This document shows positions 3,193 through 27,221 of a stretch of DNA of 40,197 nt, piece by piece (positions within the stretch are counted from its first letter, which is position 1; each line of letters starts with the position of its first letter). The stretch lies in NCBI GenBank assembly GCA_903934285.1, contig CAIZNN010000210.1:1-40197 (forward strand), written 5' to 3'. This stretch comes from Akkermansiaceae bacterium (lineage in GTDB: Bacteria; Verrucomicrobiota; Verrucomicrobiia; Verrucomicrobiales; Akkermansiaceae). A model generated the notes under the pieces. It had not been told where the DNA came from. It worked only from the letters and a program-made list of their open reading frames with translations, and made no database searches. A program made the translations under genes and the position numbers.

Positions 3193-4899
3193 ATGAAACG
3201 CGGCACCGCCATTTTTCTAGCAACAATCACCAGCCTGCTATTGGCGGTGTTTTTCCTGTTTCCGGCGTGGATGGTGCTGAAGCAGGCGTTTGCAGGCACC
3301 CGCGCCGATGGTTCCGGGTATTTCACCCTGGACTTCATCGTGCTGGTGTTCCGCAATCCGATCTATCAGGAAGGCCTGTGCAATGCCCTGGTGCTGGGCC
3401 TCACCAGCACCCTGGTCACCTTGCTCATCGCCATGCCGCTGGCACTCGTCGGCCACCGCTATGAGTTTTTCGGCAAGCAGCTGCTAAGCGCCCTGGTGCT
3501 TGCCCCGATGATCCTGCCGCCGTTTGTCGGGGCGGTGGGCATCAAACAAATCCTCGGCACCAACGGCGCATTCAACGCCCTGTTGATCCACACCGGCTGG
3601 ATGGATGCGGCCATGCCCTACGACTGGCTGGCCAACGGCCGCTTCGCGGGCATCATCGTGATGAACGCGCTGCATCTCTATCCAATTCTGTACCTCAACA
3701 TCGCCGCCGCCTTGGCCAACCTCGATCCGGCGATGGAGCAGGCTGCGGAAAACCTCGGCTGCGCGCCGTGGAAACGGTTCATCAGGATCACCCTGCCGCT
3801 GGCCATGCCGGGGGTCTTTGCCGGCGCCTCCATTGTGTTCATCTGGGCCTTCACCGAGCTGGGGGTGCCCTTGGTGTTCGATTACGCGCGCGTCGCGCCG
3901 GTGCAGATTTTCGATGGCATCAAGGGCCTCGACAAAAACCCGATCCCGTACGCCCTAACCGCCATTCTGCTGGTGGTGGCGTGCGTGGTGTTCGCGCTGT
4001 CCAAGTGGGGGGTCGGCCGGCTCAGGCTCGGCGCCGCGCCGCGCCCGCAAGGCCGCGCCACCACCAGCCGCTGCGGCCCGTGGCAAGCCGCCGCCTGCAC
4101 CTGCCTGTTTCTCGGGGTGTTCCTGATTGCTACCCTCCCCCACCTCGGCGTGCTGTTGCTCTCGGTGGCCGGCCGCTGGTACGGCACCATCATCCCGGAC
4201 CAACTTACCCTGCGCCATTACCTCGAAGCCCTCGGCAATGGACTGGTGGTGCCCTCAATCCACAACAGCTTGCTCTATGCCGGCTGCGCCACCGTGGTGG
4301 CCCTCGCCATCGGGCTGGCGGTGGCCTGGGTGGTGGTGCGCTCCGACCTGCGCTGGCGCGGCGTGCTCGACGCCATGGTCATGGCTCCCTTGGCGGTGCC
4401 CGGCCTGGTGATGGCGTTTGGCTACCTCGCGCTGTCGCAGCAAGGCAAGGTGTTTCATTTCCTGGTGGGCGCGACTGGCAGCCCCTTCCTGTTGCTGGTC
4501 ATCGCCTATGCCATCCGCAGGCTCCCCTACATCGTCCGCGCCGCCGTGGCCGGCCTCCAACAAAGCAATCCGGCGCTCGAGGAAGCCGCCCGCTCGCTCG
4601 GCGCCACCCCCGCCCGGGTGCTGCGCCGCATCGCCCTGCCGCTCATCGGCGCCAACCTCGCCGCCGGCGCGATCCTGGCGTTCGCCTTCGCCATGTTAGA
4701 GGTGAGCGACAGCCTCATTCTGGCCCAACAAACCCAACATTACCCGATCACCAAGGCGATCTACACCCTGCTGAGCACCCTCGGCAATGGCACCGAGCTG
4801 GCCGCCGCCCTCGGCGTCTGGGCGATGCTCTTCCTAACAACCTCGATCGTGGCTGCCAGCGTCCTCGGCGGCAAGCGCGGCGGGCTGTTCAAGCTGTGA
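3193..4899 (+). CDS. ABC importer permease, two fused transmembrane domains
   Basis: This is the membrane channel of the importer, with two BPD_transp_1 domains fused in one polypeptide of 568 residues, as in FbpB/SfuB-type iron permeases. Each half carries an EAA loop: EQAAENLGCAPWKRFIRITLP in the first and EEAARSLGATPARVLRRIALP in the second, where the ATPase would dock. About a dozen hydrophobic segments are visible, starting with AIFLATITSLLLAVFFLFPA. ATG 3193 (MKRGTAIF) is chosen because it places this first segment right after a short positive N-terminus. The gene is preceded directly by the heptad-repeat array and converges with the response regulator gene 9 bp downstream. Confidence 0.88.
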   Translation: MKRGTAIFLATITSLLLAVFFLFPAWMVLKQAFAGTRADGSGYFTLDFIVLVFRNPIYQEGLCNALVLGLTSTLVTLLIAMPLALVGHRYEFFGKQLLSALVLAPMILPPFVGAVGIKQILGTNGAFNALLIHTGWMDAAMPYDWLANGRFAGIIVMNALHLYPILYLNIAAALANLDPAMEQAAENLGCAPWKRFIRITLPLAMPGVFAGASIVFIWAFTELGVPLVFDYARVAPVQIFDGIKGLDKNPIPYALTAILLVVACVVFALSKWGVGRLRLGAAPRPQGRATTSRCGPWQAAACTCLFLGVFLIATLPHLGVLLLSVAGRWYGTIIPDQLTLRHYLEALGNGLVVPSIHNSLLYAGCATVVALAIGLAVAWVVVRSDLRWRGVLDAMVMAPLAVPGLVMAFGYLALSQQGKVFHFLVGATGSPFLLLVIAYAIRRLPYIVRAAVAGLQQSNPALEEAARSLGATPARVLRRIALPLIGANLAAGAILAFAFAMLEVSDSLILAQQTQHYPITKAIYTLLSTLGNGTELAAALGVWAMLFLTTSIVAASVLGGKRGGLFKL

Positions 4900-4908
4900 C
4901 CCGCGCGC

Positions 4909-5526
4909 CTAACTTGTAAGGCCGGACAGTTCGGCGATATGGACCAGCTCGGCAGGATTGCCGGCGCCGAGTTTGTGCATGGCGCGGCCGCGATGAACCT
5001 TGACGGTGATCAACGCCAGGTCGAGATGGTCGGCGATTTCCTTGTTGAGCATGCCCTCGACAACCAGGCGCACGATATCGCGTTCGCGCGGGGTCAGGGC
5101 CGCAACCCGCACGCGGGCTTCAGCGGCAGCAAACTCCTTCTGTTGTCTGGCCCGCGAGCGTTGCAAGGCGAGCGCCACGGCATCCACCAACTCGGCGGGA
5201 TCAAACGGCTTGGTTAGAAAGCCGTCGGCTCCGGCGCGCATGGCGTTGACCACCAGCTGCACATTCCAATGGGCCGTTAGAAAAACCGTGGGGATAAACC
5301 AGCCCCGGTGCAGCAATTCCTCATGCACCTGCACGCCGGTCATGCCCTCGCCCAACTGATTGTCGAGCAGCAAACAGGCCGGCACCGCAGGCAAGCCGAG
5401 GCGGAAGAGTTCCTCCGGCTCCGCATGCAACCTCACTCTGTAGCCGTGAGCCGTGAGCAGGCGCTCCAGACCGGTCCGGATGAACCTATCATCATCCAAC
5501 ACTATCACCGCATGCTCGCCGATCAT
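4909..5526 (-). CDS. LuxR/FixJ-family response regulator
   Basis: This is a cytoplasmic DNA-binding regulator controlled by phosphorylation. The N-terminal receiver domain begins HAVIVLDDDRF, with acidic residues near the start, the likely phosphorylated Asp55 in LLLDNQLGEGMTG and the conserved lysine in FLTKPFDP. The C-terminal LuxR-type helix-turn-helix begins LTPRERDIVRLVVEG and contains NKEIADHLDLALITVKVH. I chose ATG 5526 (MIGEHAV) because it starts immediately before the first receiver strand; the frame stays open upstream without domain sequence. The protein is 205 residues. The gene lies about 200 bp downstream of the histidine kinase on the same strand, which is its obvious partner. 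Target genes are unknown; the convergent importer is one possibility. Confidence 0.88.
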   Translation of the reverse strand: MIGEHAVIVLDDDRFIRTGLERLLTAHGYRVRLHAEPEELFRLGLPAVPACLLLDNQLGEGMTGVQVHEELLHRGWFIPTVFLTAHWNVQLVVNAMRAGADGFLTKPFDPAELVDAVALALQRSRARQQKEFAAAEARVRVAALTPRERDIVRLVVEGMLNKEIADHLDLALITVKVHRGRAMHKLGAGNPAELVHIAELSGLTS

Positions 5527-5723
5527 GGCAGCCTCCCTTCCGTCACCCGGTTGCCACCGCGCGCCGGCGCCTCCACCCCGGCTCCGCAAAATCGTTGCAA
5601 TTCATCAGTATGAAAAACAACAGCCCAAGGATTATCTCTTTCCGCCATACCGATGGTTTTTAACTAGCTGTAAGGTGTAGTGCAACTGTTTTTTTCGGGA
5701 AATTTCGCCGGCCCAATCGCGCG

Positions 5724-7406
5724 TCACGGCGGAGTCGCCGGCAGGCGCACCCAAAACGTGGCACCGATGCCGTCGGCGTTGTTGCAGCCTTGGATGCTGC
5801 CCCGGTGGGCCTCGACAATGGTCCGGCTGAGACGCAGCCCGACGCCCAAACCCTCCGGTTTGGTGGAGAAAAATGGCGTGAACATGCGGGCCAAGGCCTC
5901 TGGCGCGATACCGCAACCGGTATCGCGCACGCTCAACTCGACGCCGTACCCAGCCAGTGCGCGGGTGGTGATGAGCACGCCGCGGCGCTCCGGCGCACAG
6001 CCCTCGGCGGCGTCGAAGGCGTTGCTCACCAGGTTGAGGATCACTTGGCTAAGTTGCACCACGTCGCCAACAACGGCCGGCAAGGCGTCATCCAGCTCGA
6101 GGGAAAGGCGGATCTGGCGGGCTTCGGCTTTCTGCCGCAACAGGGGAAGCACTTCCGCCACGATCTCGTTGCAGTTGATGCCGACACGGTCGGGATGCTC
6201 GGGATCGGCGAGCGCCCGCAGGTGGATCACGATATTGCGCATCCGGGCGACATCGGCCTCGATGTCACTAACAATTTCCAGCGACTCGCGGCACCGTGGC
6301 TCATGCCCGGCGCAGCCGAGTTTCACCACCGCAAGATTGGCGGCCATCGCCGAGAGCGGCTGGCCGAGTTGATGGATGATGCCGGCACTGATCTCGCTAA
6401 CCAAAGCGAGGCGCTGGGCATGTTCGAGCTCGGCTTGCTGGGCATGCAATCTGGCGAGCGCTTGTTTGACGGTGGTGAGGTCGCGCACGGCGGAAATGCG
6501 CATGCGGCTACCCAGCCAAGTGCCCATGCGGGCGTGGCTTTCCGCCGGAAACCTCGACCCATCCTTGCGCAGCCCGACAAATTCGCAGGTGGAATCGATG
6601 GCATCCCCGATGCGTGTGGCGACCATGGCCCGCGACTCCGGCGCGACAAAATCGGCCAGCGGCCGCCCATTCATTTCGGCAGGTTCATAGCCATGAAGCG
6701 CGGCGAGTTGAGGGTTACCGTCCAGCAGGATGCCATCCTCGCTGATGGCGACGCCCTCAAAGGTAGCCTCTGCCAACTGGCTGAAGCGCGCTTCGCTCTG
6801 GCGCAGCTGCATGGTGCGCCTGGCGACGCGACTCTCGAGGGTCTGGTTCAAGTCCTGCAGCGCCAGGGCCGCCTGCTTGCGCTCGGTGATATCGGTCAGC
6901 ACGACCCGCCAGAGGGGCTGGCCGGCTGGGTCCGGCACGAGGGTGGCGGCCAACAGCGCCCAAACCGGCGCGCCGTCCTTGTGCCGCATCCGCAACTCAC
7001 AGGCTTGTGGCGCAGCACCCTCGATGAGTTGCTGCCGGTACCGGGAGTAGCTGGCGCGGTCGTCGTTGAGGATGAAATGCGCGAGCGGCTGCTGGATGAG
7101 TGCGCCGCGGGCCACGCCTAACCAAGTGGCGGCGGCCAGATTGGCTTCCTGGATCAACCCCGCCTCGCTGAGGCTAACATAGGCCACCGGCGCCAGATCA
7201 AAGAGATCAAAATAGCGCGCGCGGGCGGCGGCCAACTCCGCCTGCGCCCGCCGCAACGCGGCGTTTTGCAGCTCCAAGTGCCGCCGGTTCCCTGCCCCCC
7301 GCCCATCGGCCGGCGGCCCGCCCATGCCCTCGGCACCCTCCCCGTGGGAGAATGAAATCCGTGGCTCTGCCGCCTGGTCGATCAAATCTCGGGTCGTCTC
7401 ACTCAT
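5724..7406 (-). CDS. PAS-PAS sensor histidine kinase
   Basis: This 560-residue kinase would phosphorylate the downstream response regulator. After a coiled-coil-like stretch (LQNAALRRAQAELAAARARY) come two PAS domains: the first includes FDLAPVAYVSLSEAGLIQEAN and ends TDITERKQA, the second includes EDGILLDGNPQLAALHGYEP and ends VRDLTTVKQ. The kinase core has the phospho-acceptor His345 in EISAGIIHQLGQPLSAM, the N box ILNLVSNAFDAAEG, the G1 box RDTGCGIAPE, and the F/G2 region FFSTKPEGLGVGLRLSRTIV. No transmembrane segment is visible, so it is probably a cytoplasmic FixL-like sensor. No haem- or flavin-binding motif could be assigned, so the signal is unknown. Confidence 0.88.
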   Translation of the reverse strand: MSETTRDLIDQAAEPRISFSHGEGAEGMGGPPADGRGAGNRRHLELQNAALRRAQAELAAARARYFDLFDLAPVAYVSLSEAGLIQEANLAAATWLGVARGALIQQPLAHFILNDDRASYSRYRQQLIEGAAPQACELRMRHKDGAPVWALLAATLVPDPAGQPLWRVVLTDITERKQAALALQDLNQTLESRVARRTMQLRQSEARFSQLAEATFEGVAISEDGILLDGNPQLAALHGYEPAEMNGRPLADFVAPESRAMVATRIGDAIDSTCEFVGLRKDGSRFPAESHARMGTWLGSRMRISAVRDLTTVKQALARLHAQQAELEHAQRLALVSEISAGIIHQLGQPLSAMAANLAVVKLGCAGHEPRCRESLEIVSDIEADVARMRNIVIHLRALADPEHPDRVGINCNEIVAEVLPLLRQKAEARQIRLSLELDDALPAVVGDVVQLSQVILNLVSNAFDAAEGCAPERRGVLITTRALAGYGVELSVRDTGCGIAPEALARMFTPFFSTKPEGLGVGLRLSRTIVEAHRGSIQGCNNADGIGATFWVRLPATPP

Positions 7407-7466
7407 CGGTTAGCACCGACATACGCTTTCCAAAACGGCTTATCAACAAAAATCTATCGGAAACTT

Positions 7467-7492
7467 ATCCGCTAGAAAATCATCCGCTAGAA
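7467..7492. promoter_or_regulatory. Direct repeat ATCCGCTAGAA x2 in a divergent intergenic region
   Basis: ATCCGCTAGAA occurs at 7467-7477 and 7482-7492, a 15-bp period, in the 256-bp region between the kinase (minus) and the helicase-nuclease (plus). The spacing is about one and a half helical turns. It could bind a regulator controlling either gene. The rest of the region is GC-rich; TAAGAT (7651-7656) lies only six bases before the helicase start codon and may be a -10 box of a near-leaderless transcript. Confidence 0.3.
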
Positions 7493-7662
7493 CGCCCCAC
7501 CCGCAGGGCGCGCCGTTACCCCGGGGTGTGTCGGACAGCGGTCGGACCGGCGAGGGGCCGCCACCGGCAAGCCGGGCCGCCCGCCACCCCCCGCCCGGTC
7601 GAGGCCCGCCATCCCGACATTTCGCGCTTCCCCGGCGGACACCAGGGTGTAAGATAGCGCCT

Positions 7663-10515
7663 ATGCCTCGGGAATGGTCCATCTCACCGCCGCCCGCCGC
7701 CGCAAGGGCCACCACACGGTATGAGCGGGTCGACCGGACCGCGCCGGTGGCGGAAAAAATCGGGCTGTTCCGGTCCTTGTTCCGCGGCCGCAACGAGGTC
7801 TATGCACGGCGCTTCACCAGTGGCAAAACCGGCCGGGCCGGGTACCAGCCGGTGTGCGCCAACGAGTGGCTGCGCGGGGTGTGTGACAAGCCGCGGATGC
7901 GCTGCGGCGAGTGCGCCTGCCAGCGGTTTCTGCCGCTGAGCGATGAGGTGCTGCGCTGGCATTTGTCCGGCGCGGACGAGCGCGGCCGCGAGTTTGTGCT
8001 GGGGCTCTATCCAATGCTGCTAGACGAACACTGCTGGTTGTTGGCAGCTGACTTCGATGGCGAGCACTGGCGCGAGGACTCGGCCGCAGTGCTTGATACT
8101 TGCCGGCGGCTAAACCTGCCGGTGGCGTTGGAACGGTCGCGCTCGGGCGACGGCGGCCATCTGTGGTGGTTTTTCACCGAGGCGGTGCCGGCGGTGTTGG
8201 CCCGCAAGTTAGGCGCCCATCTGCTAACCGAAACGATGGAGCGGCGGCCGGAGCTCGGGCTGCGCTCGTATGACCGGTTTTCCCCCAATCAGGACACCTT
8301 GCCGAGAGGCGGCTTCGGCAATCTGATCGCCCTGCCATTGCAAATGATGGCGCGCAAAGCTGGCAACAGCGTCTTTGTCGACGACTCATTGGTGCCGCAC
8401 GAAGATCAATGGGCGTTGTTAGCAGGACTCGGCCGGATCACCCCTCAGCGCCTGGAAACAATCGTGACCGCGGCCGAAAACCGCGGCCGGATCGTGGGCG
8501 TGAAACTCGCAACGTCGGACGAGGACACCTCCCAACAGTGGACCACTCCCCCGTCACGCACCCGGCAGGCGTTGCCTACGGGCGCAGTCCCCACGATAAT
8601 CGAATTGGTGCTGGGCGACCAACTCTACCTGCCGAAAGCAGGCATGGGACCCTCGCTGCGCAATGCACTGGTGCGGCTGGCGGCATTCCAGAACCCGGAG
8701 TTCTACACGGCGCAGGCGATGCGCCTGCCAACCTACGGCAAGCCGCGCATTGTCGCCTGTGCCGAGGACCATCCGCTCCACCTCGCCCTGCCCCGCGGAT
8801 GCCTCGAGGAAACGCTCGGGTTGTTAGAGTCACTGCAGGTGAAGGTCGCAGTGCGCGACGAGCGCTGCCACGGGCGGGAGTTGGCAGTGGAATTCCGCGG
8901 CACCCTGCGCCTCCAACAACAGCAGGCCGCCGCCGCCATGCTGGCACACGACACCGGCGTGCTGGCGGCCACCACCGCCTTTGGCAAAACAGTGCTGGCT
9001 GCCTGGTTGATCGCTCAGCGCCGGGTCAGCACGTTGATCCTGGTGCACCGCCAGCAATTGTTGGAACAATGGGTCCAGCGCCTGGCGCAGTTTCTCGGAA
9101 TCGCGCCGCAGACCATCGGACGCTGGGGCGGCGGCCGCAGGAAACTCACCGGCAACATCGATGTGGCCTTGATTCAAAGTGTGATCCGCAAAAATGTGGT
9201 GCAGGAATTCGTCGGTGACTACGGGCACCTGGTGGTGGATGAATGCCATCATCTATCCGCACGGAGCTTCGAGATGGTGGCGCGGCGCGCCAGGGCGCGT
9301 TATGTCACCGGGCTTTCGGCCACGGTGACGCGCAAGGACGGCCACCATCCGATCATCTTCATGCAGTGCGGCCCGGTGCGCTACAAGGTCGATGCGCGGC
9401 AGCAGGCCGCCGAGCGACCATTCAGCCACGAAGTCTGGGTGCGCTCGACCGGATTTCTACCGCCGGGCGAGCCCGCCGCCGACACCCGCGTCGAGTTCCA
9501 ACGAGTCTGCGATGCGCTGATGCGCGCGGATTCCCGCAACCGGATGATTTGCGCCGAGGTGCTCGAGGCGCTGCGGGCGGACCGCTCCCCGGTCATCCTA
9601 ACAGAACGCACCGGGCATTTGCAACTGCTCGCCAATCTCCTCGGCGATGCGGTGCCGCACGTCATCACGCTGCAAGGCGGCATGGGGCGCAAGTCCCTGC
9701 ACGCGGCGCTGGAACGAATACGGGTCATTCCGGCCGCAGAAGGCCGCGTGCTGCTTGCCACCGGGCGCTTTCTCGGCGAAGGCTTCGATGACGCGCGCCT
9801 GGACACCTTGTTTCTAACCATGCCGGTGTCATGGCATGGCACCATCGCGCAATATGTCGGGCGGCTGCATCGCCTGCACGATGGCAAGCGCTGTGTGCGG
9901 GTCTATGATTACGCGGATCTGGAGGTGCCGATGCTGGCACGCATGTTTAACAAACGCTGCGCCGGTTATGAGGCGGCCGGCTACACCATCCTGCTGCCCG
10001 CCAGCGCCTTGCCAGGCTGGCCAACCGATGTGGCGTTACCCCACGATTCCCAATGGAAACAGGATTACGCGGCAAGCGTGCGCAGGCTGCTCCGTGATGG
10101 CGTGGATCGGCCGCTGGCCCGCTTGTTTGTGCATGCCACCAACGCGCCGCTTGCGGGGGCCGAGGGCGCGGCGCGGGCGCGCAGTGCCAGTGAGGCGTTT
10201 TTCTATCACCGACTCGAGTCGCTGCCGGATTTGGCAGGACTATTCCAACTCAATGCCTTGCTGCCCATTCCCTTTGATGACCGCAGCCAGATGGAGGTGG
10301 ATTTCCTGGCGGCGGAGGCGCGTTTGGTCATCGAGATCGATGGCGGCCAGCATTTGGCCGATGCCGACGCGTGGCGGCGCGACCGCCGCAAAGATGCCGC
10401 CTTGCAGGCGCACGGGTATTTCGTGCTGCGCTTCCTCGCCGCCGATTTGGGCATGCATCTGGACACGGTACTCGATACCGTACTGCGCACCCTCGCCCAC
10501 CTGCGGCGAGCGTGA
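7663..10515 (+). CDS. TOTE-type primase / SF2 helicase / DUF559 nuclease fusion
   Basis: This 950-residue multidomain protein has the look of a nucleic-acid-targeting conflict enzyme. The N-terminal third is an archaeo-eukaryotic primase domain of the TOTE type: KIGLFRSLFRGRNEVYARR, a Cys-rich stretch CDKPRMRCGECACQRF, the acidic pair Asp130/Asp132 in LLAADFDGEHW, and RSRSGDGGHLWWFF. The middle is a superfamily 2 helicase with the Walker A-like ATTAFGKT (Lys442), motif II DECHH (526-530), GLSATVTRKDG, and motif VI QYVGRLHRLHDGK. The C-terminus carries a DUF559/Vsr-like nuclease core, VDFLAAEARLVIEIDGGQHL (Glu891, Asp893). ATG 7663 is used because the frame upstream is proline/arginine-rich and unlike the family. 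No obvious operon partner follows; a RAYT gene is convergent 33 bp downstream. The biological role is inferred from architecture. Confidence 0.85.
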   Translation: MPREWSISPPPAAARATTRYERVDRTAPVAEKIGLFRSLFRGRNEVYARRFTSGKTGRAGYQPVCANEWLRGVCDKPRMRCGECACQRFLPLSDEVLRWHLSGADERGREFVLGLYPMLLDEHCWLLAADFDGEHWREDSAAVLDTCRRLNLPVALERSRSGDGGHLWWFFTEAVPAVLARKLGAHLLTETMERRPELGLRSYDRFSPNQDTLPRGGFGNLIALPLQMMARKAGNSVFVDDSLVPHEDQWALLAGLGRITPQRLETIVTAAENRGRIVGVKLATSDEDTSQQWTTPPSRTRQALPTGAVPTIIELVLGDQLYLPKAGMGPSLRNALVRLAAFQNPEFYTAQAMRLPTYGKPRIVACAEDHPLHLALPRGCLEETLGLLESLQVKVAVRDERCHGRELAVEFRGTLRLQQQQAAAAMLAHDTGVLAATTAFGKTVLAAWLIAQRRVSTLILVHRQQLLEQWVQRLAQFLGIAPQTIGRWGGGRRKLTGNIDVALIQSVIRKNVVQEFVGDYGHLVVDECHHLSARSFEMVARRARARYVTGLSATVTRKDGHHPIIFMQCGPVRYKVDARQQAAERPFSHEVWVRSTGFLPPGEPAADTRVEFQRVCDALMRADSRNRMICAEVLEALRADRSPVILTERTGHLQLLANLLGDAVPHVITLQGGMGRKSLHAALERIRVIPAAEGRVLLATGRFLGEGFDDARLDTLFLTMPVSWHGTIAQYVGRLHRLHDGKRCVRVYDYADLEVPMLARMFNKRCAGYEAAGYTILLPASALPGWPTDVALPHDSQWKQDYAASVRRLLRDGVDRPLARLFVHATNAPLAGAEGAARARSASEAFFYHRLESLPDLAGLFQLNALLPIPFDDRSQMEVDFLAAEARLVIEIDGGQHLADADAWRRDRRKDAALQAHGYFVLRFLAADLGMHLDTVLDTVLRTLAHLRRA

Positions 10516-10547
10516 GGACCACTAACACCCAACACTCTGGCATTGCC

Positions 10548-11651
10548 CTAACTGATCCGCCGGCGCAAGTCCCGCACGCTCCACAACCGCCCGGCCGCCG
10601 CCGCGCCACTGCCCCGCAATTTGCGCGCCCCATCCTTGCGCGTCGTCCCGAAACGCTCCCGGCACCGCGTGAACACCTCATCCACAAACCCCCGGCTGCC
10701 GAGCACCGCCCCGTCGGTGAAATACCTCACCCGGCAGCGCAGCATCCGGCTTAGCGCCACATCCCGGCTCCGTTCAAGCTGGGCCAACTCCGCTTCCACA
10801 TCGCCCTTCCTCATGCCTTTCCTAACCACTTTCACCGCCCGCCCGCCGCCCTCGCTCACCACTTCCTGCAACTTCTCTGCGCCTTCCGCTAACAAAAGCA
10901 TCCGGTAGCCCTTCGACACCTCGCCCGCCCAATGCCGCGCATCGGCCTCATAGCCCTTGTGCGCCATGAGCGCCCGCACCAGGCCGGCCCGCGCCTTCCT
11001 GCCATCGCCTCTCGCGCCCCCGCCCATCGCCTCGCCATAACTGCTCCAGCGGTAATCCGCCGGGTCGATCACCATCCCCGCGCGCACCGGGTTCAAATCA
11101 ATATAGGCCGCCATCGTCCGCGCCGCCAGCCCGTCCTCCACCAGCACGCTTTTGAAGCGCGATTCCCACAGCGCGCCGGCGCGTTCGTACCTGGAGTTGA
11201 ACCACCGGCTGAAGCGCAGCAGCAGTGTCTTCATAAACTCCCCCAAATCGTGCATCCGATAGGTATAGCGTCCGTGCAGCTCCCGCACCAATGACTCATC
11301 CGCCAAGCCGTCCCTCACCTGCTGCCGCAGCTCCGCCAACTCCTTGGCCACCACCCCTACCGCCGCCTCGGTGTAGATCGCTCGCAGCCGCCGCAGCAAC
11401 TCCGCGTCCGACAATCCTCCCTCCGCCAGTGGCGGCACTTCCAGCAACAAGTGCACATGGTTGCTCATCAAACAATATGCCAGCACCCGGCACCCCGAAA
11501 AATCCTCATACATCCGCAGGTAAGTGCGGAATTGCTCCTTTTCCTTCTGCCCGAACGCCAAGCGGCGCTCCACCACCCGCGTGATGCAGTGATAGATCAC
11601 AGGGCGTTCGGCGGAATCCTTCCACGGGGCCAGCCAGCGCGCGCGTCTCAT
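10548..11651 (-). CDS. RAYT (IS200-like, REP-associated) HUH transposase, copy 1
   Basis: This single-strand DNA transposase belongs to the Y1/HUH superfamily. After the typical N-terminus (PVIYHCITRVVERRLAFGQ) comes the HUH motif His65-Val-His67 in SNHVHLLLEVP, then the helix bearing the likely catalytic Tyr region (RYTYRMHDLGEFMKTLLLRF), LWESRFKSVLVEDG and IDLNPVRAGMV. A long C-terminal extension ends with RVRYFTDGAVLGSRGFVDEVF. The protein is 367 residues, equal in length to copy 2. I start at ATG 11651 (MRRARWLAPWKDS): further upstream the frame runs through a GAAGTT/GAAATT hexamer tract that would encode an artefactual Asn-Phe string. Proteins of this family process REP hairpins and are often domesticated. 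Confidence 0.88.
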   Translation of the reverse strand: MRRARWLAPWKDSAERPVIYHCITRVVERRLAFGQKEKEQFRTYLRMYEDFSGCRVLAYCLMSNHVHLLLEVPPLAEGGLSDAELLRRLRAIYTEAAVGVVAKELAELRQQVRDGLADESLVRELHGRYTYRMHDLGEFMKTLLLRFSRWFNSRYERAGALWESRFKSVLVEDGLAARTMAAYIDLNPVRAGMVIDPADYRWSSYGEAMGGGARGDGRKARAGLVRALMAHKGYEADARHWAGEVSKGYRMLLLAEGAEKLQEVVSEGGGRAVKVVRKGMRKGDVEAELAQLERSRDVALSRMLRCRVRYFTDGAVLGSRGFVDEVFTRCRERFGTTRKDGARKLRGSGAAAAGRLWSVRDLRRRIS

Positions 11652-11660
11652 AGTCGTATA

Positions 11661-11700
11661 GAAGTTGAAGTTGAAATTGAAGTTGAAATTGAAGTTGAAG
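11661..11700. repeat. Hexamer tandem repeat (GAAGTT/GAAATT) before RAYT copy 1
   Basis: Six full units plus a partial one of GAAGTT or GAAATT run head to tail ten bases upstream of the transposase start. The units alternate mostly as a 12-mer. Just upstream, TCACC and GGTGA flank CAC (about 11711-11723) as a small hairpin, and an AT-rich stretch lies near 11765-11780. The tract probably lies in the mRNA leader and is likely length-variable. Confidence 0.85.
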
Positions 11701-11825
11701 GTTGTTGCGGCATCACCCACGGTGACAACAGCGGAGCCTAGCCACGTGCCGCGCGGTCCGCAAGCAAAATATAATTGTTTCTCTGACCCCATGAATAAAT
11801 CCTCGCGCCTCGGGCTTACGCTTCT

Positions 11826-14714
11826 TCATTGGGCGAGATCGAGCAGGCTGGCCTTGAGTTCTTCGGGCCACTCGAGGGCGTCGATGGTGGTGGTTTCGGC
11901 CCACACCGGGGCGAGTTCGAGCAGGTTATGATAGTGGGTGGCGGCCTCCTCGGGGAAGCCGGCTTGGGCGGCGGCCACCGCGAGCATCAGACAGGAGTTC
12001 TCGTGCTTGTCGGCGGGGTAGCCGACGCGGAGGCCAGCCAGCAGGAATTGATAGGCACGCGCCCCATTGCCAGTCAGGAGGGCGATCCAACCGGCGCGCA
12101 GGGCGAAGTTGGGGTCGTCGGGGAAGCGCTGGATGCCGGTGGTTAGGATCGCCATGGCTTGGCTCGCATCGCCATTTTCAAAGGCGGTGTAGGCGGCCTC
12201 GGCATAGTCGCCGGAGAGGTGGGTGGCCACCGGGTGCTCGGTGAGCAGGGTGACCCAGCGGGGGTGGGCGCCGGCGTAATCGCCGAGGCGGGTGAGGGCC
12301 AGTGCCTCGGCGCGCAGGCACGGTTCGGGCGGGGCGCCGAGCGAGCGGGCACGGTTGGCGAGTTGGAAGGTGGCCGCCGAGTGGTCCGGGAAAGCCGCCA
12401 GGGCGAGGGCTGCTTTGAGGCAGTTATCAGCCAGACGGCGGCGACCGATGATGCCCCGGGTGGCGGGATCGAGCAAGCGGGCGGCCAGCGCGGCGCGTTC
12501 ATCGGCAGTGGTCGCCGCGGCAACTTCGTAGCCGGCCAGTTGCTTGTGGATGGCTTGCAGGTGCGCCGCATAACAAGGCGCGAAATCCGCCTGCTCCCAG
12601 CCGTCCCAATCTTCGGTTAGACGGAGCCGTTCATAATCGGGGAATTCGTCCGGCCAAGGTGAGATGGCGTCGGCCATGCGTTGCTGCAACCAGGCGATGC
12701 GCGATTGGCCCAACACCCGCAACACCGGCGGCAGCGCGGTGGCGGACTGCAGGCAGGCGTCTATCCAAGCCGGGGATTCGGATGCGAGCGCGAGCGCCAG
12801 CGCGGTGGCCGCCGCCGGTCCGCGGCCGCCGGCGGCTTGGATTTCCCTGAGGATGGCGGGCTCATCGCGCTTGCCGAAAGCTTCCCGGATGCGGAGTTGC
12901 GCGAGCCAGGGCGAAGGGTCATCGGTGCGGACCACTTCGGCGCGCGGTTGAATCACGGCGCGCAGCGCGGCCGCTTCGGTTAGATCCTGGTGCCAACGGG
13001 TGTCGGCCAGGGGTTGGGCGAGTTCCAACAAGCGCGGCCACGCCTTGGCGGAGTGATCGGACCGGGCCAAGCGGTCCCACAGCGGCAGCAACGCCGCGAC
13101 AGGCGCCTCGCGGGGACACGCCGCCTTGAGCTCCGCCAAGGTGGCGGTAAAGTCCAGCCCGGGAAGCAGCTTGGTGGCGAGCTCCGGCGGCAGCTTGTCT
13201 AACAATCCCAAGCGCTGCGCCACGGTCAGGCCGACGAAGGTCCCGCCAGTGTCCTCGAAGCGGATGCCGGAGAGAATTTCGGCGAGCAGGCCGAGTGCGG
13301 TGGAGTCGATCGGGTCGGAAGCATGCGTGGTGGCGCTAGTGTGAGGCGGCGGCAGGAAGCGATGCATCACGACGCCGCCGTGGTCCGTGCCAAGGATCGC
13401 CACGCCCGGGCCAAATGCCGCGGCGGTGATGGGAGAGGCGCTGTGGATCGGCGCGCGCGGGGAGTTGCAAAAGCTCAGGCTGGCAGCCTGGATGCAAATG
13501 GGTGCCGGCTCTTCGGGGTTGCCGTGATCGCGCAGCAAGCCGGTCCAGACCGACGGTTGGCGGCTCCATGGCAAATCCATCACCCACCCGGGCACGGCGG
13601 CTGGGTTCGTCGGGCCAGCCCCAGGGGCGGGGGGAAGCAAGCACGGGGCGTCACCGTCGGCAAGCCTGTCAATTTGATAGAACCGGCGCACAGGGGCGAG
13701 GTCGGCCCCCCGGCCTAGCAAAACCAGGGCCGCCCCGTCCTGCGGGTGCATCTGGGCATGCTCCAAGGCCAGCGGCGTGCCCGGGGGGTAGCTGCGGGCG
13801 GGGTCCACCGGTGAGACGGGAACATCCAGCAGCGAACCGTCGGCATGCAGAACGCGCAACCGTTGGGAATCGAGCTGCGCGGCAAGCGGGCGCGCGGCGT
13901 CCCCGGCCAGCGGTTCGGAACTGCGGATGACGCCGCCGGTGGCGGCATCGCGAATCCGCCAGACCAGGCGGGGGTCGGTGGCGGAGGCCGCGCCGGGATG
14001 GGCGATGAGCAAGCCGTTGGCAGACGAGACAATGACCGCCTGGGGCGTTAGGTCGGCTGGCAGCGGGCCGAGGTCAGCGATGGGACGCAGGGATGCGGCG
14101 GCGCACAGCAAGGTGACCGCGGTGGGGCCGCTGCCGCGTTGGACCACCAGGGCGTGCGCGTTGTGGCCGACGACAAGGTGATGAGTCGCGGCGCCGCGCG
14201 CAGGAAAGAGCACACTCTGTATTTTCAAGGCCTCGGTATTCCATAAGACGGTGGTGTTGAAACCATCCGGCAGGGGTTCGGCGAGACTGACCCACAGCGA
14301 CGAGGGCGGGGCAAACGCGAGGTGTTGCACCGGCCACGGGTGGCTGATCGAAGCGATGGGGATGTGCCAGAGGGTTTCGGTTAACATCTGGCGGATGAGC
14401 GCGGCCGCCTCGCTGCAACCGGGGTCCACCTTGAGGGCGGAAATGAGCAGCGCGAGGGCTTCGTCTCGGGCAAATTTTTCGCTGCGGGCTTTGGCGGCGG
14501 CGAGCCGTGCGGCGGCGAGTTGGCGCGCCAGGGGGGCTGCCGCGGCTGCCGCGGTGGACGGGTTGACGGAGGGGATGCTAGGCGGGGCGGCGGTTTTTTT
14601 TTGGCAGGCGGCGAGGGCTATGACGATGGCCGCCAGTGCTGTTAGCAGACGGCTGCGGCGGGCTAAAGCCCGCGCTCCTCGCAAGCGGCGGTGGTGACTG
14701 GGTGGATGCGGCAT
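11826..14714 (-). CDS. Large predicted lipoprotein with repeat-like architecture, function unknown
   Basis: I do not recognise this 962-residue protein. The N-terminus is a lipoprotein signal: a basic region (RALARRSRLL), a hydrophobic stretch TALAAIVIALAAC with a lipobox cysteine at residue 37, then a low-complexity Pro/Ala linker. The N-terminal half looks like a WD40-type or beta-propeller scaffold (repeated strands such as VQHLAFAPPSSLWVSLAEP and ITAAAFGPGVAILGTDHGG). The C-terminal half is helical and TPR-like (GDYAEAAYTAFENGDASQAMAILTTGIQRFPDDPNFALRA is an example spanning two helices pairs). ATG 14714 gives a sensible signal peptide; ATG 14804 would overlap the upstream stop as ATGA but puts 66 residues before the cysteine region. 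It is last in an operon with an ABC-2 exporter, suggesting a periplasmic partner. Confidence 0.75.
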   Translation of the reverse strand: MPHPPSHHRRLRGARALARRSRLLTALAAIVIALAACQKKTAAPPSIPSVNPSTAAAAAAPLARQLAAARLAAAKARSEKFARDEALALLISALKVDPGCSEAAALIRQMLTETLWHIPIASISHPWPVQHLAFAPPSSLWVSLAEPLPDGFNTTVLWNTEALKIQSVLFPARGAATHHLVVGHNAHALVVQRGSGPTAVTLLCAAASLRPIADLGPLPADLTPQAVIVSSANGLLIAHPGAASATDPRLVWRIRDAATGGVIRSSEPLAGDAARPLAAQLDSQRLRVLHADGSLLDVPVSPVDPARSYPPGTPLALEHAQMHPQDGAALVLLGRGADLAPVRRFYQIDRLADGDAPCLLPPAPGAGPTNPAAVPGWVMDLPWSRQPSVWTGLLRDHGNPEEPAPICIQAASLSFCNSPRAPIHSASPITAAAFGPGVAILGTDHGGVVMHRFLPPPHTSATTHASDPIDSTALGLLAEILSGIRFEDTGGTFVGLTVAQRLGLLDKLPPELATKLLPGLDFTATLAELKAACPREAPVAALLPLWDRLARSDHSAKAWPRLLELAQPLADTRWHQDLTEAAALRAVIQPRAEVVRTDDPSPWLAQLRIREAFGKRDEPAILREIQAAGGRGPAAATALALALASESPAWIDACLQSATALPPVLRVLGQSRIAWLQQRMADAISPWPDEFPDYERLRLTEDWDGWEQADFAPCYAAHLQAIHKQLAGYEVAAATTADERAALAARLLDPATRGIIGRRRLADNCLKAALALAAFPDHSAATFQLANRARSLGAPPEPCLRAEALALTRLGDYAGAHPRWVTLLTEHPVATHLSGDYAEAAYTAFENGDASQAMAILTTGIQRFPDDPNFALRAGWIALLTGNGARAYQFLLAGLRVGYPADKHENSCLMLAVAAAQAGFPEEAATHYHNLLELAPVWAETTTIDALEWPEELKASLLDLAQ

Positions 14715-14800
14715 GGCTACCTGGCGAAACAACTCCACAGCGGGCGGCTCGTGTCGGTAAAAACCGGCTGGCAGGTGGTGAGGGGGGTGGATTTGCGCCA

Positions 14801-15766
14801 TCATTCATCCGGGGTGTCCGGGGCCGGCTGTTGCAGAAAGATGCTCTTGTCCGCGGGAATCCCGAGGGTGGTTTCGAGGGCATTGAGCGCCGCCGCGACG
14901 CCATGGACGGGGAGCCGCTCGCCGGTGCGCAGCCAGTAGGTGGCGAGGGTTTTGTAGGCATTGTCCGGGGAACCGAAGAGGCTGAGGGCGAAACCCGCGG
15001 GGTCAATGATGTTAGGTCCGGCGTGGACTTCGAGCGCGAAATACACGCACACCAAGGTGGGGGTGCGGTTGGCGCGGGTTTGATAGAGGGTGCGGGCGAG
15101 GGCGAGGGCCTCGGCTTCACGGCTTGGCACGCGGGCGAGGGCGTAGAGTTGGAACCGGCGCAGATAGGGCAGGGCATCGGCGGCATCGGCGGCGATCTGG
15201 TAGGCTGCGGCCGCCGCGGCGAAGGTGGCATCCGCATCGCGGAAGGCGCGGGATTTATTGCGATCCGTGAGCAGAAACCCGAGATAGGCGTTGAGCTTGG
15301 GATCGCCGGGGATGTTGCGGATGCCGCGTTCGAGAAACCCACGGCCTTTAAGCACCGAATCACGCCAGGCCGCGTCGCGGCGCAGCGGCGGCAGGTTCGA
15401 GTCGTTCAGATAGTAGGATGAGGCATTGTAGGCCTGATGCCAGGCGCCGGTTTCCCAATAGTAACTGGTGCGGGGTGCCAAATCGACAATCGTGTTGAAG
15501 GTGTCGGCGACATCATCCCAGCGCCGTTCGGTGAAAAACGTGAAGGCACGGAGATTGAGAAAGGTGGCCACCAGCGTGCGCAAACCACCGAGGGCGACGG
15601 CCGCGCCGGTCTGGCCGATTTTGTCGCGGGTGGCGATTGGCAAGGGCGCCGCGAGCAGTCCGGTGGCGCGCAACTGGCGGGTGAACGCCGCCTCGACGGG
15701 CATGCGCACGGCGCCGGCCACCAGCAGTGCCGACACAAGGATCAGAGGTCTGCGCCAGCGGTTCAC
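14801..15766 (-). CDS. Membrane-anchored secreted protein of unknown function
   Basis: This 321-residue protein has an N-terminal signal or anchor (PLILVSALLVAGAV after a basic MNRWRRP) and a helical, TPR-like body: WDDVADTFNTIVDLAPRTSYYW and LERGIRNIPGDPKLNAYLGFLL resemble TPR helices and loops. I do not recognise a named family. It starts four bases after the permease gene ends, and its own stop overlaps a possible start of the lipoprotein gene, so the four genes probably form one transcript. It likely acts on the outer face of the membrane with the exporter. Confidence 0.75.
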   Translation of the reverse strand: MNRWRRPLILVSALLVAGAVRMPVEAAFTRQLRATGLLAAPLPIATRDKIGQTGAAVALGGLRTLVATFLNLRAFTFFTERRWDDVADTFNTIVDLAPRTSYYWETGAWHQAYNASSYYLNDSNLPPLRRDAAWRDSVLKGRGFLERGIRNIPGDPKLNAYLGFLLTDRNKSRAFRDADATFAAAAAAYQIAADAADALPYLRRFQLYALARVPSREAEALALARTLYQTRANRTPTLVCVYFALEVHAGPNIIDPAGFALSLFGSPDNAYKTLATYWLRTGERLPVHGVAAALNALETTLGIPADKSIFLQQPAPDTPDE

Positions 15767-15770
15767 GGGG

Positions 15771-16706
15771 TTAGAACTCCTTTGTGGCGAAGATGAACCA
15801 GGACGCGGTGGTATAGGTAACGGCGTAGAACAAGCCGCTTGCAGTGAGCATCCCCAAGTCGGCGAGTGCCATGGCTTGACCTTGGATCACCGCATCGATC
15901 ACATTGAACAGTTGGAAGTCCGGCAGCACCAGCGTCACCAACAGGGCAACCGTGCGCGTCACCAGTCCTTGGCCGCCGGTCTCCGCATCCAGGAAAATGC
16001 CGCGCGCATCAGCCTGAAAATAGCCGATGAAATAAATCAGGAACCCGACGATACTGGTGAACAGGGTGCTCGACGAAAAGGTGGAAATGAACAGCGCCAG
16101 CGACGCCATGATTGAGGCCAGCAGAAACACCGCAACCACGGCACCTTGCAGCGACCAATTCGGCCCGTGGGTGAGGATTTCCGCCCGCAGCGAGCCAATC
16201 TCCACCACCGACCAACCGCGGGCCTGCGCGATTTCCAATTGTTGGCTCAGGATCATCGAGGTGCGGACTTGCAGCACCAAGGTCATCAGCAGGTCCATCA
16301 GAGCCAGGGAAACCAACACCAACAACAACACACCTATCAACTTGCCCGCCAGATAGTCGATGCGCGGCACCGGCTTGGCCAAAATGGTGTACAAGGTGCG
16401 GTCTTCGACGTCCTTGGGCAGCAGCAACGCGGTGGCCACGATCGCGAAGACCACCGAAAACAAGGTCATGGCACCAAGCGACCAACTCTTGATGACGCGC
16501 AAGATGCTGATGCCGGCCACTTCCGGTCCGGCATGTTGCGGCAGGTCGAAAAAATTGCTGCCGATGGCAATGAGCGCAAACACCGCGAGAAAGTAAAACA
16601 CCTTCATCCGCACCAACTGGGTGAACGCGTGGGTGGCGATCACCGCGATGCGCCCGCCATGCGAACCACGGTTAGAGCGGACGGGACTGGCAGACTGGTG
16701 ACTCAT
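15771..16706 (-). CDS. ABC-2 type transporter permease
   Basis: This 311-residue integral membrane subunit pairs with the preceding ATPase. Six hydrophobic segments are visible, including VFYFLAVFALIAIGSNFF, AMTLFSVVFAIVATALLLP, LIGVLLLVLVSLALMDLLM and ASIMASLALFISTF. The segment DVEDRTLYTILAKPVPRIDYLAGKL is typical of ABC-2 permeases of the NosY/GldF type. Between the central segments lies a long soluble loop (residues about 135-185). Its start overlaps the ATPase stop by four bases, indicating translational coupling. The exported substrate is unknown. Confidence 0.85.
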   Translation of the reverse strand: MSHQSASPVRSNRGSHGGRIAVIATHAFTQLVRMKVFYFLAVFALIAIGSNFFDLPQHAGPEVAGISILRVIKSWSLGAMTLFSVVFAIVATALLLPKDVEDRTLYTILAKPVPRIDYLAGKLIGVLLLVLVSLALMDLLMTLVLQVRTSMILSQQLEIAQARGWSVVEIGSLRAEILTHGPNWSLQGAVVAVFLLASIMASLALFISTFSSSTLFTSIVGFLIYFIGYFQADARGIFLDAETGGQGLVTRTVALLVTLVLPDFQLFNVIDAVIQGQAMALADLGMLTASGLFYAVTYTTASWFIFATKEF

Positions 16707-19788: not shown

Positions 19789-19857
19789 GGAATAGGATGC
19801 TCCTCTTGTGTGGAATAGGATGCTCCTCTTGTGTGGAATAGGATGCTCCTCTTGTGA
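19789..19857. repeat. 23-bp tandem repeat, three copies
   Basis: GGAATAGGATGCTCCTCTTG followed by TGT repeats at 19789-19811, 19812-19834 and 19835-19857, the last ending TGA instead of TGT. A partial relative, GGAATAGGCTTCC, precedes at 19758. The array lies between the tcdA start and the RAYT copy 2 start. Confidence 0.9.
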
Positions 19858-19898
19858 AATTCTGCTTGCGATGCGGATTGAAGGGGTTAGCTTGGCGC

Positions 19899-21002
19899 AT
19901 GCCACGCGCACGCTTCATTGCCCCATGGAAGGATTCGACAGAGAGGCCCGTGATCTACCACTGCGTGAGCCGGGTGGTGGACCGGCGGTTTGCCTTTGGT
20001 CAGGAGGAAAAGGAGAAACTGCGGACATTCATGCGGATGTACGAGAACTTTTCCGGCTGCCGGGCGCTGGCGTATTGCTTCATGAGCAATCATATCCATC
20101 TGCTGCTGGAGGTGCCACCACTACCGGCAGGGGGCTTGAGCGACGCGGAGTTGCTGCGACGGTTGCGGTGCATCTACAACGAGGCGGCGGTGGCCGTGGT
20201 GGCGAAGGAGTTGGCGGAACTGCGGCAGAGCGTGCAGAACGGACTGGCGGGCGAGGCGTTGGCGCGGGAACTGCACGAGCGCTACACCTACCGGATGCAC
20301 GATTTGAGTGAGTTCATGAAGGGGCTCATGCAACGTTTCACCCAATGGTTCAACCGCCGCAGCAAACGCAGCGGCGGGTTGTGGGAAGATGTATTCAAGA
20401 GCGTGTTGGTGGAGGATGGGGTGGCGTCGCGCACGATCGCGGCTTACATCGATCTGAACCCGGTGCGCGCCGGGCTGGCGGCGGATCCGGCGGAGTATCG
20501 CTGGAGCAGCTATGGCGAGGCGATGGGCGGCGGGCCAAGAGGCGATGGCAAGAAGGCGCGGGCCGGCTTGGTGCGGGCGCTGATGGCCCACAAGGGCTAC
20601 GTAGCGGATGCGCGGCATTGGGCCGGGAACGTGTCCAAGGACTATCGGATGATCTTGTTGGATGAAGGCGCGGAGAAGTCGCAGGAGGTGGTGGGTGAGG
20701 GTGGCAAGCGGGAAGTTAGAGTGATCAAGAAGGGCATGACAAAAGAAGCAGTGGAAGCGGAATTGGTGCAATTGGAGCGGAGCCGGGATGTGGCGCTGGG
20801 CAAGATGCTGCGCTGCCGGGTACGCTATTTCACTGACGGTGCGGTGCTAGGGAGCCGCGGGTTTGTGGACGGGGTGTTTCGGGCATGCCGGGATCGGTTT
20901 GGGCCGCAACGCACCAGCGGAGCGCGGAAATTGCGGGGCAACGGGGCGGCGGCGGCCGGCACGTTATGGAGTGTTAGGAATTTGACCAAGGGGATTGGGT
21001 GA
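19899..21002 (+). CDS. RAYT (IS200-like, REP-associated) HUH transposase, copy 2
   Basis: This is a close paralogue of the gene at 10548-11651, with the same 367-residue length and matching blocks throughout. The HUH motif is HIH in SNHIHLLLEVP; RYTYRMHDLSEFMKGLMQRF follows, then LWEDVFKSVLVEDG, IDLNPVRAGLA and the C-terminal RVRYFTDGAVLGSRGFVDGVF. Near the end it has GPQRTSGARKLRGNGAAAAGTLWSVRN, where copy 1 has a very similar segment. ATG 19899 (MPRARFIAPWKDS) matches the start chosen for copy 1. No terminal inverted repeats of a full insertion sequence were seen. It lies directly upstream of the Wadjet operon on the same strand. Confidence 0.88.
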   Translation: MPRARFIAPWKDSTERPVIYHCVSRVVDRRFAFGQEEKEKLRTFMRMYENFSGCRALAYCFMSNHIHLLLEVPPLPAGGLSDAELLRRLRCIYNEAAVAVVAKELAELRQSVQNGLAGEALARELHERYTYRMHDLSEFMKGLMQRFTQWFNRRSKRSGGLWEDVFKSVLVEDGVASRTIAAYIDLNPVRAGLAADPAEYRWSSYGEAMGGGPRGDGKKARAGLVRALMAHKGYVADARHWAGNVSKDYRMILLDEGAEKSQEVVGEGGKREVRVIKKGMTKEAVEAELVQLERSRDVALGKMLRCRVRYFTDGAVLGSRGFVDGVFRACRDRFGPQRTSGARKLRGNGAAAAGTLWSVRNLTKGIG

Positions 21003-21025: not shown

Positions 21026-21071
21026 GGTCCCGCTTGACTTGCCCGCACCCCGTAGCCCACCTTGCCCGGCA

Positions 21072-22502: not shown

Positions 22503-22510
22503 GTAACCGA

Positions 22511-22550
22511 AGCCTGCATTAGGCGCTTACGTTAGGCGAGGGTGCAGGCT
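22511..22550. repeat. Hairpin with internal TTAGGCG repeats after jetA
   Basis: AGCCTGCA (22511-22518) pairs with TGCAGGCT (22543-22550). The 24-nt loop carries TTAGGCG twice (22519 and 22532). It starts 8 bases after the jetA stop, so it could terminate or protect the jetA message. No T run follows. Confidence 0.6.
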
Positions 22551-22683
22551 TAGCCTCCTCTGACCGGTGACTCAGTGGTAGGGTTGTAGCCCCCCGCCCT
22601 GCCCAGCCTCACCGACTCCGCCAATCCCTCCGGCTATCTCAAGGGCATGCGTCGGCGCGATCCCTTTTTGGCCGAGGCGTTCA

Positions 22684-27153: not shown

Positions 27154-27221
27154 CTGATGAAATTGATCTAACGGCATCAGATCCATTGTTGCAAGGACGC
27201 CGATTCGTACCCGTCAAACCG

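What the first reader, a model, noticed from the sequence alone, without database searches (positions are those of the whole stretch)
7663..10515. TOTE-type primase, helicase and DUF559 nuclease in one chain
Primase-like residues (Asp130, Asp132), helicase motifs (Lys442, DECHH) and a DUF559/Vsr-like nuclease core (Glu891, Asp893) lie in one 950-residue protein. Known TOTE conflict systems combine primase-like and helicase domains with variable nucleases. Here it stands as a single gene next to a two-component system and RAYT copy 1. It could be a stand-alone anti-mobile-element system.
Basis: partly seen in the sequence, partly recalled or inferred. Interest (0 to 1): 0.6.

Follow-up and report, generated by a model that had tools for sequence, protein, structure and literature searches.

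The report
Single-chain primase, helicase and nuclease
One bacterial gene joins a DNA-copying enzyme, a DNA motor and DNA-cutting scissors in a single protein that has spread between very different bacteria, probably as an optional shield against foreign DNA, though this has not been tested here.

Summary
Window 7663-10515 (+) encodes a 950-residue protein with three supported parts: an AEP primase domain (Pfam AEP-TOTE, E 2.5e-88), an XPB-type SF2 helicase, and a DUF559/Vsr-like nuclease. The label "TOTE system" does not hold: TOTE means TPR, OB, TBP, Effector, and no such partners were found (0 of 52 AEP-TOTE-bearing genomes have a TBP over cut-off; no neighbour cluster in more than 5 of 80 loci). 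By fold the primase matches CRISPR-associated Prim-Pol (7nqd, Z 24.8), but no cas1 was found near the gene. The closest published kind is the non-CRISPR CAPP-Helicase (PMC8211822, passages). What this adds is a C-terminal nuclease that defines one clade over nine named phyla, patchy, at different loci in close relatives, mostly solitary. Nuclease-less relatives occur on plasmids beside recombinases and toxin-like genes. Best reading: a mobile, self-contained anti-foreign-DNA factor; repair or fork restart is the main rival. No activity is shown. The adjacent RAYT is probably incidental. A Wadjet-type set lies 10.5 kb downstream.

The parts
7663..10515 (+). Single gene: AEP primase - XPB-type SF2 helicase - DUF559 nuclease, 950 aa
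7753..8460 (+). AEP (Prim-Pol) domain, residues 31-266, fold of CRISPR-associated Prim-Pol (CAPP)
   Evidence: Pfam PF22548 2.5e-88; profile match to 7nqd 2.2e-16; Z 24.8, rmsd 2.2 over 196 residues
7855..7914 (+). Invariant Cys cluster C65, C74, C81, C84, possibly a zinc site (inferred)
   Evidence: invariant in 81 rows
8050..8058 (+). Primase DxD motif D130/D132; the partner H166 lies further on
   Evidence: 80 of 80 rows
8593..10008 (+). XPB-like helicase, residues 311-782, with an XPB-like N-terminal domain before the two RecA folds
   Evidence: 6p4f Z 26.2, rmsd 3.8 over 392 residues, model 311-767
8968..8994 (+). Walker A (ATTAFGKTV, K442)
   Evidence: K442 80 of 80
9238..9252 (+). DECHH (motif II), residues 526-530
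   Evidence: D526 to H529 invariant in 81 rows, 79 of 80 in the other set; H530 75 of 80
10177..10509 (+). DUF559/Vsr-like nuclease, residues 839-949, with E878, D880, E891, D893, H897
   Evidence: Pfam; 3hrl Z 11.0, homing endonuclease I-Bth0305I Z 10.2, Vsr Z 8.4
5724..7406 (-). Neighbour: PAS histidine kinase, divergent, with response regulator 4909-5589; context only
10548..11792 (-). Neighbour: RAYT (Y1_Tnp) copy 1, convergent, 32 bp away; context, probably incidental

Best explanation
An accessory, horizontally moving, self-contained DNA-processing enzyme whose likeliest job is to restrict foreign DNA. Proposed mechanism: the XPB-type motor loads on forked, gapped or single-stranded DNA and moves along it; the Prim-Pol domain primes or extends DNA there, or senses single strands or 3' ends; the tethered Vsr-like nuclease nicks or cuts the strand being processed. 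Shown here: the three folds, conserved catalytic residues, one origin of the nuclease-fused form, patchy distribution, different loci in close relatives, no fixed partner found. Inferred: substrate, order of events, and the defence role.
For: Catalytic residues of all three parts are kept. The fused form is one clade of 91 rows (SH-like 97) with nine named phyla, 17 label changes against a minimum of 8. Patchy: 39 of 288 genomes of a phylum sample carry AEP-TOTE over cut-off; 64 of 386 in an order sample match at E <= 1e-100 (both counts include nuclease-less forms). Four close relatives (73-82% identity) share no flanking DNA with the window; similarity stops at the ORF ends. Ten genomes that have the gene lying downstream of the G019/G029 copy show no AEP gene in the 1-1.5 kb held upstream of it, G000 and G006 among them. 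G006 has a tmk-like gene where the window has AEP plus RAYT. Usually one full-length copy per genome; three genomes have two AEP-TOTE matches. Of nine plasmid regions with nuclease-less relatives, four have a recombinase trio, two TniQ, one HipA, one transposase genes, one no annotation. Ten genes picked by eye beside DUF559-less forms include Fic, HipA, AbiEii, Schlafen-like and McrBC proteins.
Against: No activity is shown. Immediate neighbours of the fused form are mostly ordinary: about 10 of 92 scanned carry toxin-antitoxin, restriction or transposase families among the 25 of 102 families shown, no clear excess over neighbours of RAYTs in the own genome. The gene's GC is ordinary (0.651 against 0.644 for the window). 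XPB, RadD and Vsr are repair proteins. Thermus Ppol first looked like a barrier to incoming DNA, but later work found addAB mutations in every ppol mutant (abstract of PMC9751324). Most homologue records are metagenome bins, so single phylum labels can be wrong.
Confidence: 0.5

Rival explanations
1. Accessory DNA repair or fork-restart factor: the XPB-like motor and Vsr-like nuclease remove damaged strands, as archaeal XPB does with its nuclease partner Bax1 (partner role recalled), and the Prim-Pol refills or re-primes.
For: Best helicase matches are XPB proteins, including XPB-Bax1 complexes, and RadD; the nuclease resembles Vsr, a mismatch-repair nuclease; neighbours are mostly ordinary genes.
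Against: Sparse and patchy even within a genus, spread across phyla, different loci; nuclease-less relatives on plasmids and next to recombinases.
Confidence: 0.27
2. Replication or transposition protein of a small selfish element, or a remnant of one.
For: Related AEP-helicases follow TniQ or stand beside tyrosine-recombinase trios; published AEP-helicases often belong to mobile elements (passages of PMC5862659, and PMC8211822).
Against: Usually one full-length copy per genome; no shared flanking DNA, similarity ends at the ORF in the four closest relatives (L039 shares the RAYT as well); no neighbour cluster in more than 4 of 88 fused loci, while the same method finds shared genes in 4 of 9 plasmid loci.
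Confidence: 0.14
3. A CRISPR adaptation Prim-Pol (CAPP) proper.
For: CAPP fold and PADLOC PrimPol model 7.5e-79.
Against: Cas1 is found in 37 of 57 genomes, never on the contig of the homologue except in G377, where both lie on the one contig about 4.9 Mb apart. Many contigs are short, so a link beyond a contig end is not excluded in single genomes.
Confidence: 0.03
4. Effector of a complete TOTE conflict system with TPR, OB and TBP partners.
For: The Pfam family name only.
Against: No TBP over cut-off in 52 genomes (two weak matches below it), no conserved neighbour.
Confidence: 0.03

Closest known systems
CRISPR-associated primase-polymerases, third type (CAPP-Helicase), and their non-CRISPR homologues (PMC8211822; passages read)
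   Same: CAPP-type Prim-Pol domain followed by a helicase; the paper says the commonest non-CRISPR CAPP architecture has a helicase and that these typically lie in mobile or transposable elements
   Different: Here a DUF559/Vsr-like nuclease follows the helicase; no cas1 was found near it; the words 'nuclease domain' do not occur in that paper's main text
TOTE conflict systems (definition seen only as quoted in PMC12458937)
   Same: Shares the Pfam AEP-TOTE domain name
   Different: No TPR, OB or TBP partners found
XPB-Bax1 helicase-nuclease pair (6p4f, 6p4o, 6p4w)
   Same: XPB-type helicase in a complex with a nuclease; Bax1 appears among the nuclease matches, but only at Z 6.3
   Different: Nuclease of another family, fused in cis, plus a primase
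Thermus thermophilus ICETh2 Ppol/Hel (PMC7693054 abstract and passages; PMC9751324 abstract)
   Same: Prim-Pol with a helicase in a mobile element; [quoted passage not shown]
   Different: Different helicase type and separate genes; no nuclease mentioned in the passages seen; later work found addAB mutations in every ppol mutant
Helicase-nuclease defence systems such as Hachiman and DdmD (mechanism recalled; HamB weak match E 0.014, DdmD Z 4.5)
   Same: A motor coupled to a nuclease that acts on invading DNA
   Different: No primase; other families

Membership tests
TOTE conflict system | AEP effector domain (AEP-TOTE) | tested here: met
   Pfam 296 bits, cut-off 27
TOTE conflict system | TBP gene | tested here: not met
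   0 of 52 genomes over cut-off, own genome none; a very divergent TBP could escape
TOTE conflict system | TPR-OB (cold-shock) partner beside the gene | tested here: not met
   No neighbour cluster in more than 5 of 80 loci; the largest looks like an ABC ATPase. No TPR-OB profile was run on the flanks, and some contigs are short.
CAPP (CRISPR-associated Prim-Pol) | CAPP-type AEP fold | tested here: met
   7nqd Z 24.8, rmsd 2.2 over 196; profile E 2.2e-16
CAPP (CRISPR-associated Prim-Pol) | cas1 in the same operon | tested here: not met
   57 genomes; cas1 in 37, on the homologue's contig only in G377, about 4.9 Mb away
Non-CRISPR CAPP-Helicase | Prim-Pol followed by helicase, no Cas1 beside it | tested here: met
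DUF559/Vsr-like nuclease | Fold and acidic core | tested here: met
   Pfam over cut-off; 3hrl Z 11.0, Vsr Z 8.4; D893 invariant in 81 rows
DUF559/Vsr-like nuclease | DNA cleavage | not testable with these tools
   needs purified protein
XPB helicase | XPB N-terminal domain plus two RecA folds with motifs I and II | tested here: met
   model 311-767 on 6p4f; K442, DECH invariant in 81 rows
Anti-phage or anti-plasmid defence system | Protection against invading DNA | not testable with these tools
   no experiment; PADLOC matched its PrimPol models to the primase part, other models only weakly

The most novel reading that the evidence does not exclude
A one-protein prime-and-cut immunity: the Prim-Pol marks invading single-stranded or gapped DNA by starting synthesis on it, and the XPB-type motor then drives the tethered Vsr-like nuclease along the marked DNA, with no guide, no methylation mark and no partner. 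The core would be modular: the same AEP-helicase uses a fused nuclease here and separate toxin-like partners (Fic, HipA, AbiEii, Schlafen-like, McrBC) in some of its nuclease-less relatives.
Probability: 0.2. Interest if true: 0.75.

Novelty: new variant of a known kind. Interest (0 to 1): 0.42.

Why it matters
Primase, motor and nuclease in one conserved chain, found under nine phylum names, give a single-gene target for testing what the widespread non-CRISPR Prim-Pol helicases do. If it protects against plasmids or phages it would be a compact guide-free interference enzyme; if it does not, it would be a new mobile repair enzyme. Either result would help explain relatives now annotated only as DEAD/DEAH box helicase.

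Tried and rejected
TOTE membership: rejected. CRISPR adaptation: rejected.

RAYT as a functional partner: RAYT-like ORFs abut the homologue at five independent loci (window, L039=L011, L099=L149, L170, L058), and with the same queries no further one turned up in the flanks of the other loci, though two more lie in the window. Against it: the queries were themselves taken from abutting copies; PF01797 shows an IS200-type ORF about 3.1 kb from the homologue in G296 (L157) that these queries missed; G000 has 42 Y1_Tnp matches; 39 ORFs (of 62 listed) beside 26 of its RAYTs are mostly ordinary genes; only the window and L039 share RAYT type and orientation. Left as suggestive, probably incidental.

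Operonic partner in trans for the nuclease-less form only: the raw count of a codirectional ORF just upstream is not decisive (11 of 23 nuclease-less against 31 of 84 fused); the nature of the genes differs more, but one search was a hand-picked ten, and the 54 include related plasmids and two neighbours of L074 and L092, which belong to the fused clade.

Clean empty site: not found. In G006 the slot holds a gene that I recognise as tmk by its P-loop (no family scan was run on it); at the G019/G029 locus the upstream genes differ too.

A phospholipase-D-like C-terminus in L107 and L168 was judged by eye only; Pfam gave nothing there.

Foldseek on the nuclease alone gave no match at E <= 0.001; the assignment rests on VIA-align, Pfam and 3hrl by sequence.

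Rows dropped: one search used 79 of 89 loci (ORF of 850 aa or more); the tree left out L028, L066, L077, L098 (split frames), L156, L171-L174 and three duplicates. L074 and L092 count there as lacking the nuclease, but L074 is a broken frame and L092's DNA matches to residue 945. One search scanned 92 of 131 neighbour ORFs (96 were 150 aa or longer), 54 of 56 (57 listed in all). The tree is FastTree; some long branches meet. Plasmid regions: 9 of the 30 listed hits of 242 records were opened.

Full report
What is there. Window 7663-10515 (+) is one open frame of 950 codons. hmmscan gives AEP-TOTE at residues 31-266 (E 2.5e-88), ResIII at 414-556 (4.3e-18) and DUF559 at 879-944 (1.2e-11), all over Pfam's cut-offs. 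With 80 homologues as alignment (A1) AlphaFold2 gives mean pLDDT 85 and pTM 0.71. VIA-align places residues 30-274 on the Prim-Pol domain of the CRISPR-associated Prim-Pol of Marinitoga (7nqd, Z 24.8, rmsd 2.2 over 196) and 311-767 on archaeal XPB (6p4f, Z 26.2, rmsd 3.8 over 392), from the start of the XPB chain. The C-terminal part folded alone (pLDDT 91.9) matches 3hrl (Z 11.0), the homing endonuclease I-Bth0305I (Z 10.2) and Vsr (Z 8.4); Foldseek alone gave no match at E <= 0.001 for that part. A profile search of PDB sequences agrees on 7nqd (2.2e-16), XPB (1.4e-24) and 3hrl (3e-7).

Active sites. D130, D132, H166 and K442 are identical in 80 of 80 rows, and E891 and D893 in 77 of 80; the exceptions are L074 (broken frame), L105 and L107 (no DUF559 match). 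In the 81-row set C65, C74, C81, C84, D526-H529, E878 and D893 are invariant, D880, E891 and H897 nearly so. The cysteines may bind zinc (inference).

Who else has it. In a FastTree tree of 122 rows built on the primase-helicase part only, the nuclease-bearing rows form one clade of 91 (SH-like 97); nuclease-less forms lie outside it. Two rows inside scored as lacking it are a broken frame (L074) and a row whose DNA match runs to residue 945 (L092), so no true loss is seen. Nine named phyla are mixed within the clade: 17 label changes, at least 8 needed, 36.9 if shuffled. Most of these records are metagenome bins, so single labels may be wrong. Plasmid relatives: of 242 matching records the 30 listed match only up to residues 776-788, that is without the nuclease. 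No phage record covers 80% of the protein (0 of 1090 matching records). Nine viral contigs carry relatives; one (L102) is nuclease-bearing.

Distribution. 39 of 288 genomes in a phylum sample carry AEP-TOTE over cut-off; 64 of 386 in an order sample have a match at E <= 1e-100; both include nuclease-less forms. The own genome has one. In the four closest relatives DNA similarity with the window is confined to the gene. In G006, which carries an 82% homologue on another contig, the array response regulator - kinase - TPR gene - two further genes is kept, with a tmk-like gene where the window has the AEP gene and RAYT; its counterpart in the own genome is on contig C234. In ten genomes the gene that lies downstream of the G019/G029 copy has no AEP gene in the 1-1.5 kb held upstream of it. 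L039 (Luteolibacter) has the same convergent AEP-RAYT pair at 66% DNA identity.

Neighbours. In 80 named loci no flanking protein cluster occurs in more than 5; in 88 fused loci no more than 4, whereas the same method finds shared genes in 4 of 9 plasmid loci. Immediate neighbours of fused homologues (92 scanned) give AbiEii 4, Schlafen-like 2, Y1_Tnp 2, N6_Mtase 1, MmeI 1, SNF2 1 and many ordinary genes (25 of 102 families shown). A rough control, 39 ORFs beside RAYTs of the own genome, gives a handful of such families too: PDC-S01, HerA and other PADLOC models, AAA_14-DUF4143 and PIN. Neighbours of forms scored as nuclease-less (54 scanned) give integrases 3, Fic 3, HipA 2, AAA_14-DUF4143 2, TniQ 2, resolvase 2, Schlafen-like 2, McrBC 1, AbiEii 1 (25 of 48 families shown; the three integrases come from related plasmids). 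In nine plasmid regions opened, four have a trio of tyrosine recombinases (L184, L188, L189 about 40 bp away; L185 further), two TniQ just upstream (L183 overlapping, L187), one HipA (L182), one transposase genes (L186), one no annotation (L181). Ten genes picked by eye include Fic, HipA, AbiEii, Schlafen-like, AAA_14-DUF4143 and McrBC proteins and one DUF2293 protein. The count of codirectional upstream ORFs does not separate the two forms well (11 of 23 against 31 of 84).

Is it TOTE? A 2025 preprint spells TOTE out as TPR, OB, TBP, Effector (passages of PMC12458937), citing Aravind et al. 2022, which is not held. TBP: 0 of 52 AEP-TOTE-bearing genomes over cut-off, two weak matches below it. 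The Pfam family also picks up reverse-transcriptase primases (L172, and L173 beside cas1) and an AEP next to a SNF2 helicase (L174). So the family name does not make the gene a TOTE system. Is it a CAPP? The fold fits, and the CAPP paper reports a CAPP-Helicase type and says that non-CRISPR homologues most often carry a helicase and typically lie in mobile or transposable elements (passages of PMC8211822). But cas1, present in 37 of 57 genomes, is on the homologue's contig only in G377, about 4.9 Mb away.

Mechanism. The anatomy suggests a motor that opens or follows DNA, a polymerase that can start strands, and a cutter tethered behind. I prefer an anti-foreign-DNA role because the gene is optional, moves between loci and phyla, has no partner that I could find, and its nearest nuclease-less kin often live among mobile and toxin-like genes. 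[quoted passage not shown] The nuclease-bearing form shows no clear excess of defence neighbours, and XPB and Vsr are repair proteins, so a repair role stays open.

Novelty. Ten literature searches listed no title or abstract on the AEP-XPB-DUF559 fusion; several listings were cut (for example 15 of 60, 12 of 142), the library lacks most subscription journals, and Aravind et al. 2022 and Iyer et al. 2005 could not be read. I call it a new variant of a known kind. Passages of PMC10910872, PMC7824862, PMC5512222, PMC12839542 and PMC10853773 were also seen; those passages do not describe this fusion.

Nearby. A JetABCD set (Wadjet type I by PADLOC models) lies at 21039-28460, so the contig holds a recognised kind of anti-plasmid system 10.5 kb from the gene. 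RAYT copy 2 ends 36 bp before the longest JetA frame.

Noticed in passing
window 21039-28460 (+): Set of JetA, JetB, JetC, JetD genes (Wadjet type I by PADLOC, best E 2e-31, 5e-9, 4e-141, 5e-35), an anti-plasmid kind of system 10.5 kb downstream of the finding.
   Followed up: partly
window 19854-21002 (+): RAYT copy 2 stands 36 bp before the JetA frame, as RAYT copy 1 stands 32 bp from the primase-helicase-nuclease gene.
   Followed up: partly
G000, 42 places: The genome holds 42 Y1_Tnp (RAYT-type) matches; 39 scanned ORFs beside 26 of them are mostly ordinary genes.
   Followed up: partly
L039 9806-13960 against window 7663-11639: The convergent AEP-RAYT pair is kept at about 66% DNA identity in Luteolibacter in another gene context, while no RAYT was found beside the closer AEP relatives L022-L025: the pair may have moved as a unit.
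   Followed up: partly
L206 5310-13255 against window 4909-16706: The kinase/regulator to TPR-gene array is kept in G006 with a tmk-like gene in the slot filled by AEP and RAYT here; its counterpart is on contig C234 in the own genome.
   Followed up: partly
L183 2932-7283; L184, L188, L189 at 4833-10750: On alphaproteobacterial plasmids nuclease-less AEP-helicases overlap the end of TniQ in a Tni-type gene row or stand about 40 bp from a trio of tyrosine recombinases.
   Followed up: partly
L107 6083-8965; L168 7903-10857: AEP-helicases whose extra C-terminal part is not DUF559; it looks phospholipase-D-like by eye, but Pfam found nothing there.
   Followed up: no
window 11661-11700: A short tandem repeat of GAAGTT/GAAATT units adds a repetitive stretch to the start of the longest RAYT frame; the real start is probably the ATG at 11651-11649.
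   Followed up: no
window 39983-40195 (-): Third, partial RAYT at the contig end.
   Followed up: no
L157 3260-3721 (-): IS200-type ORF of 153 aa about 3.1 kb from the fused homologue in G296.
   Followed up: no
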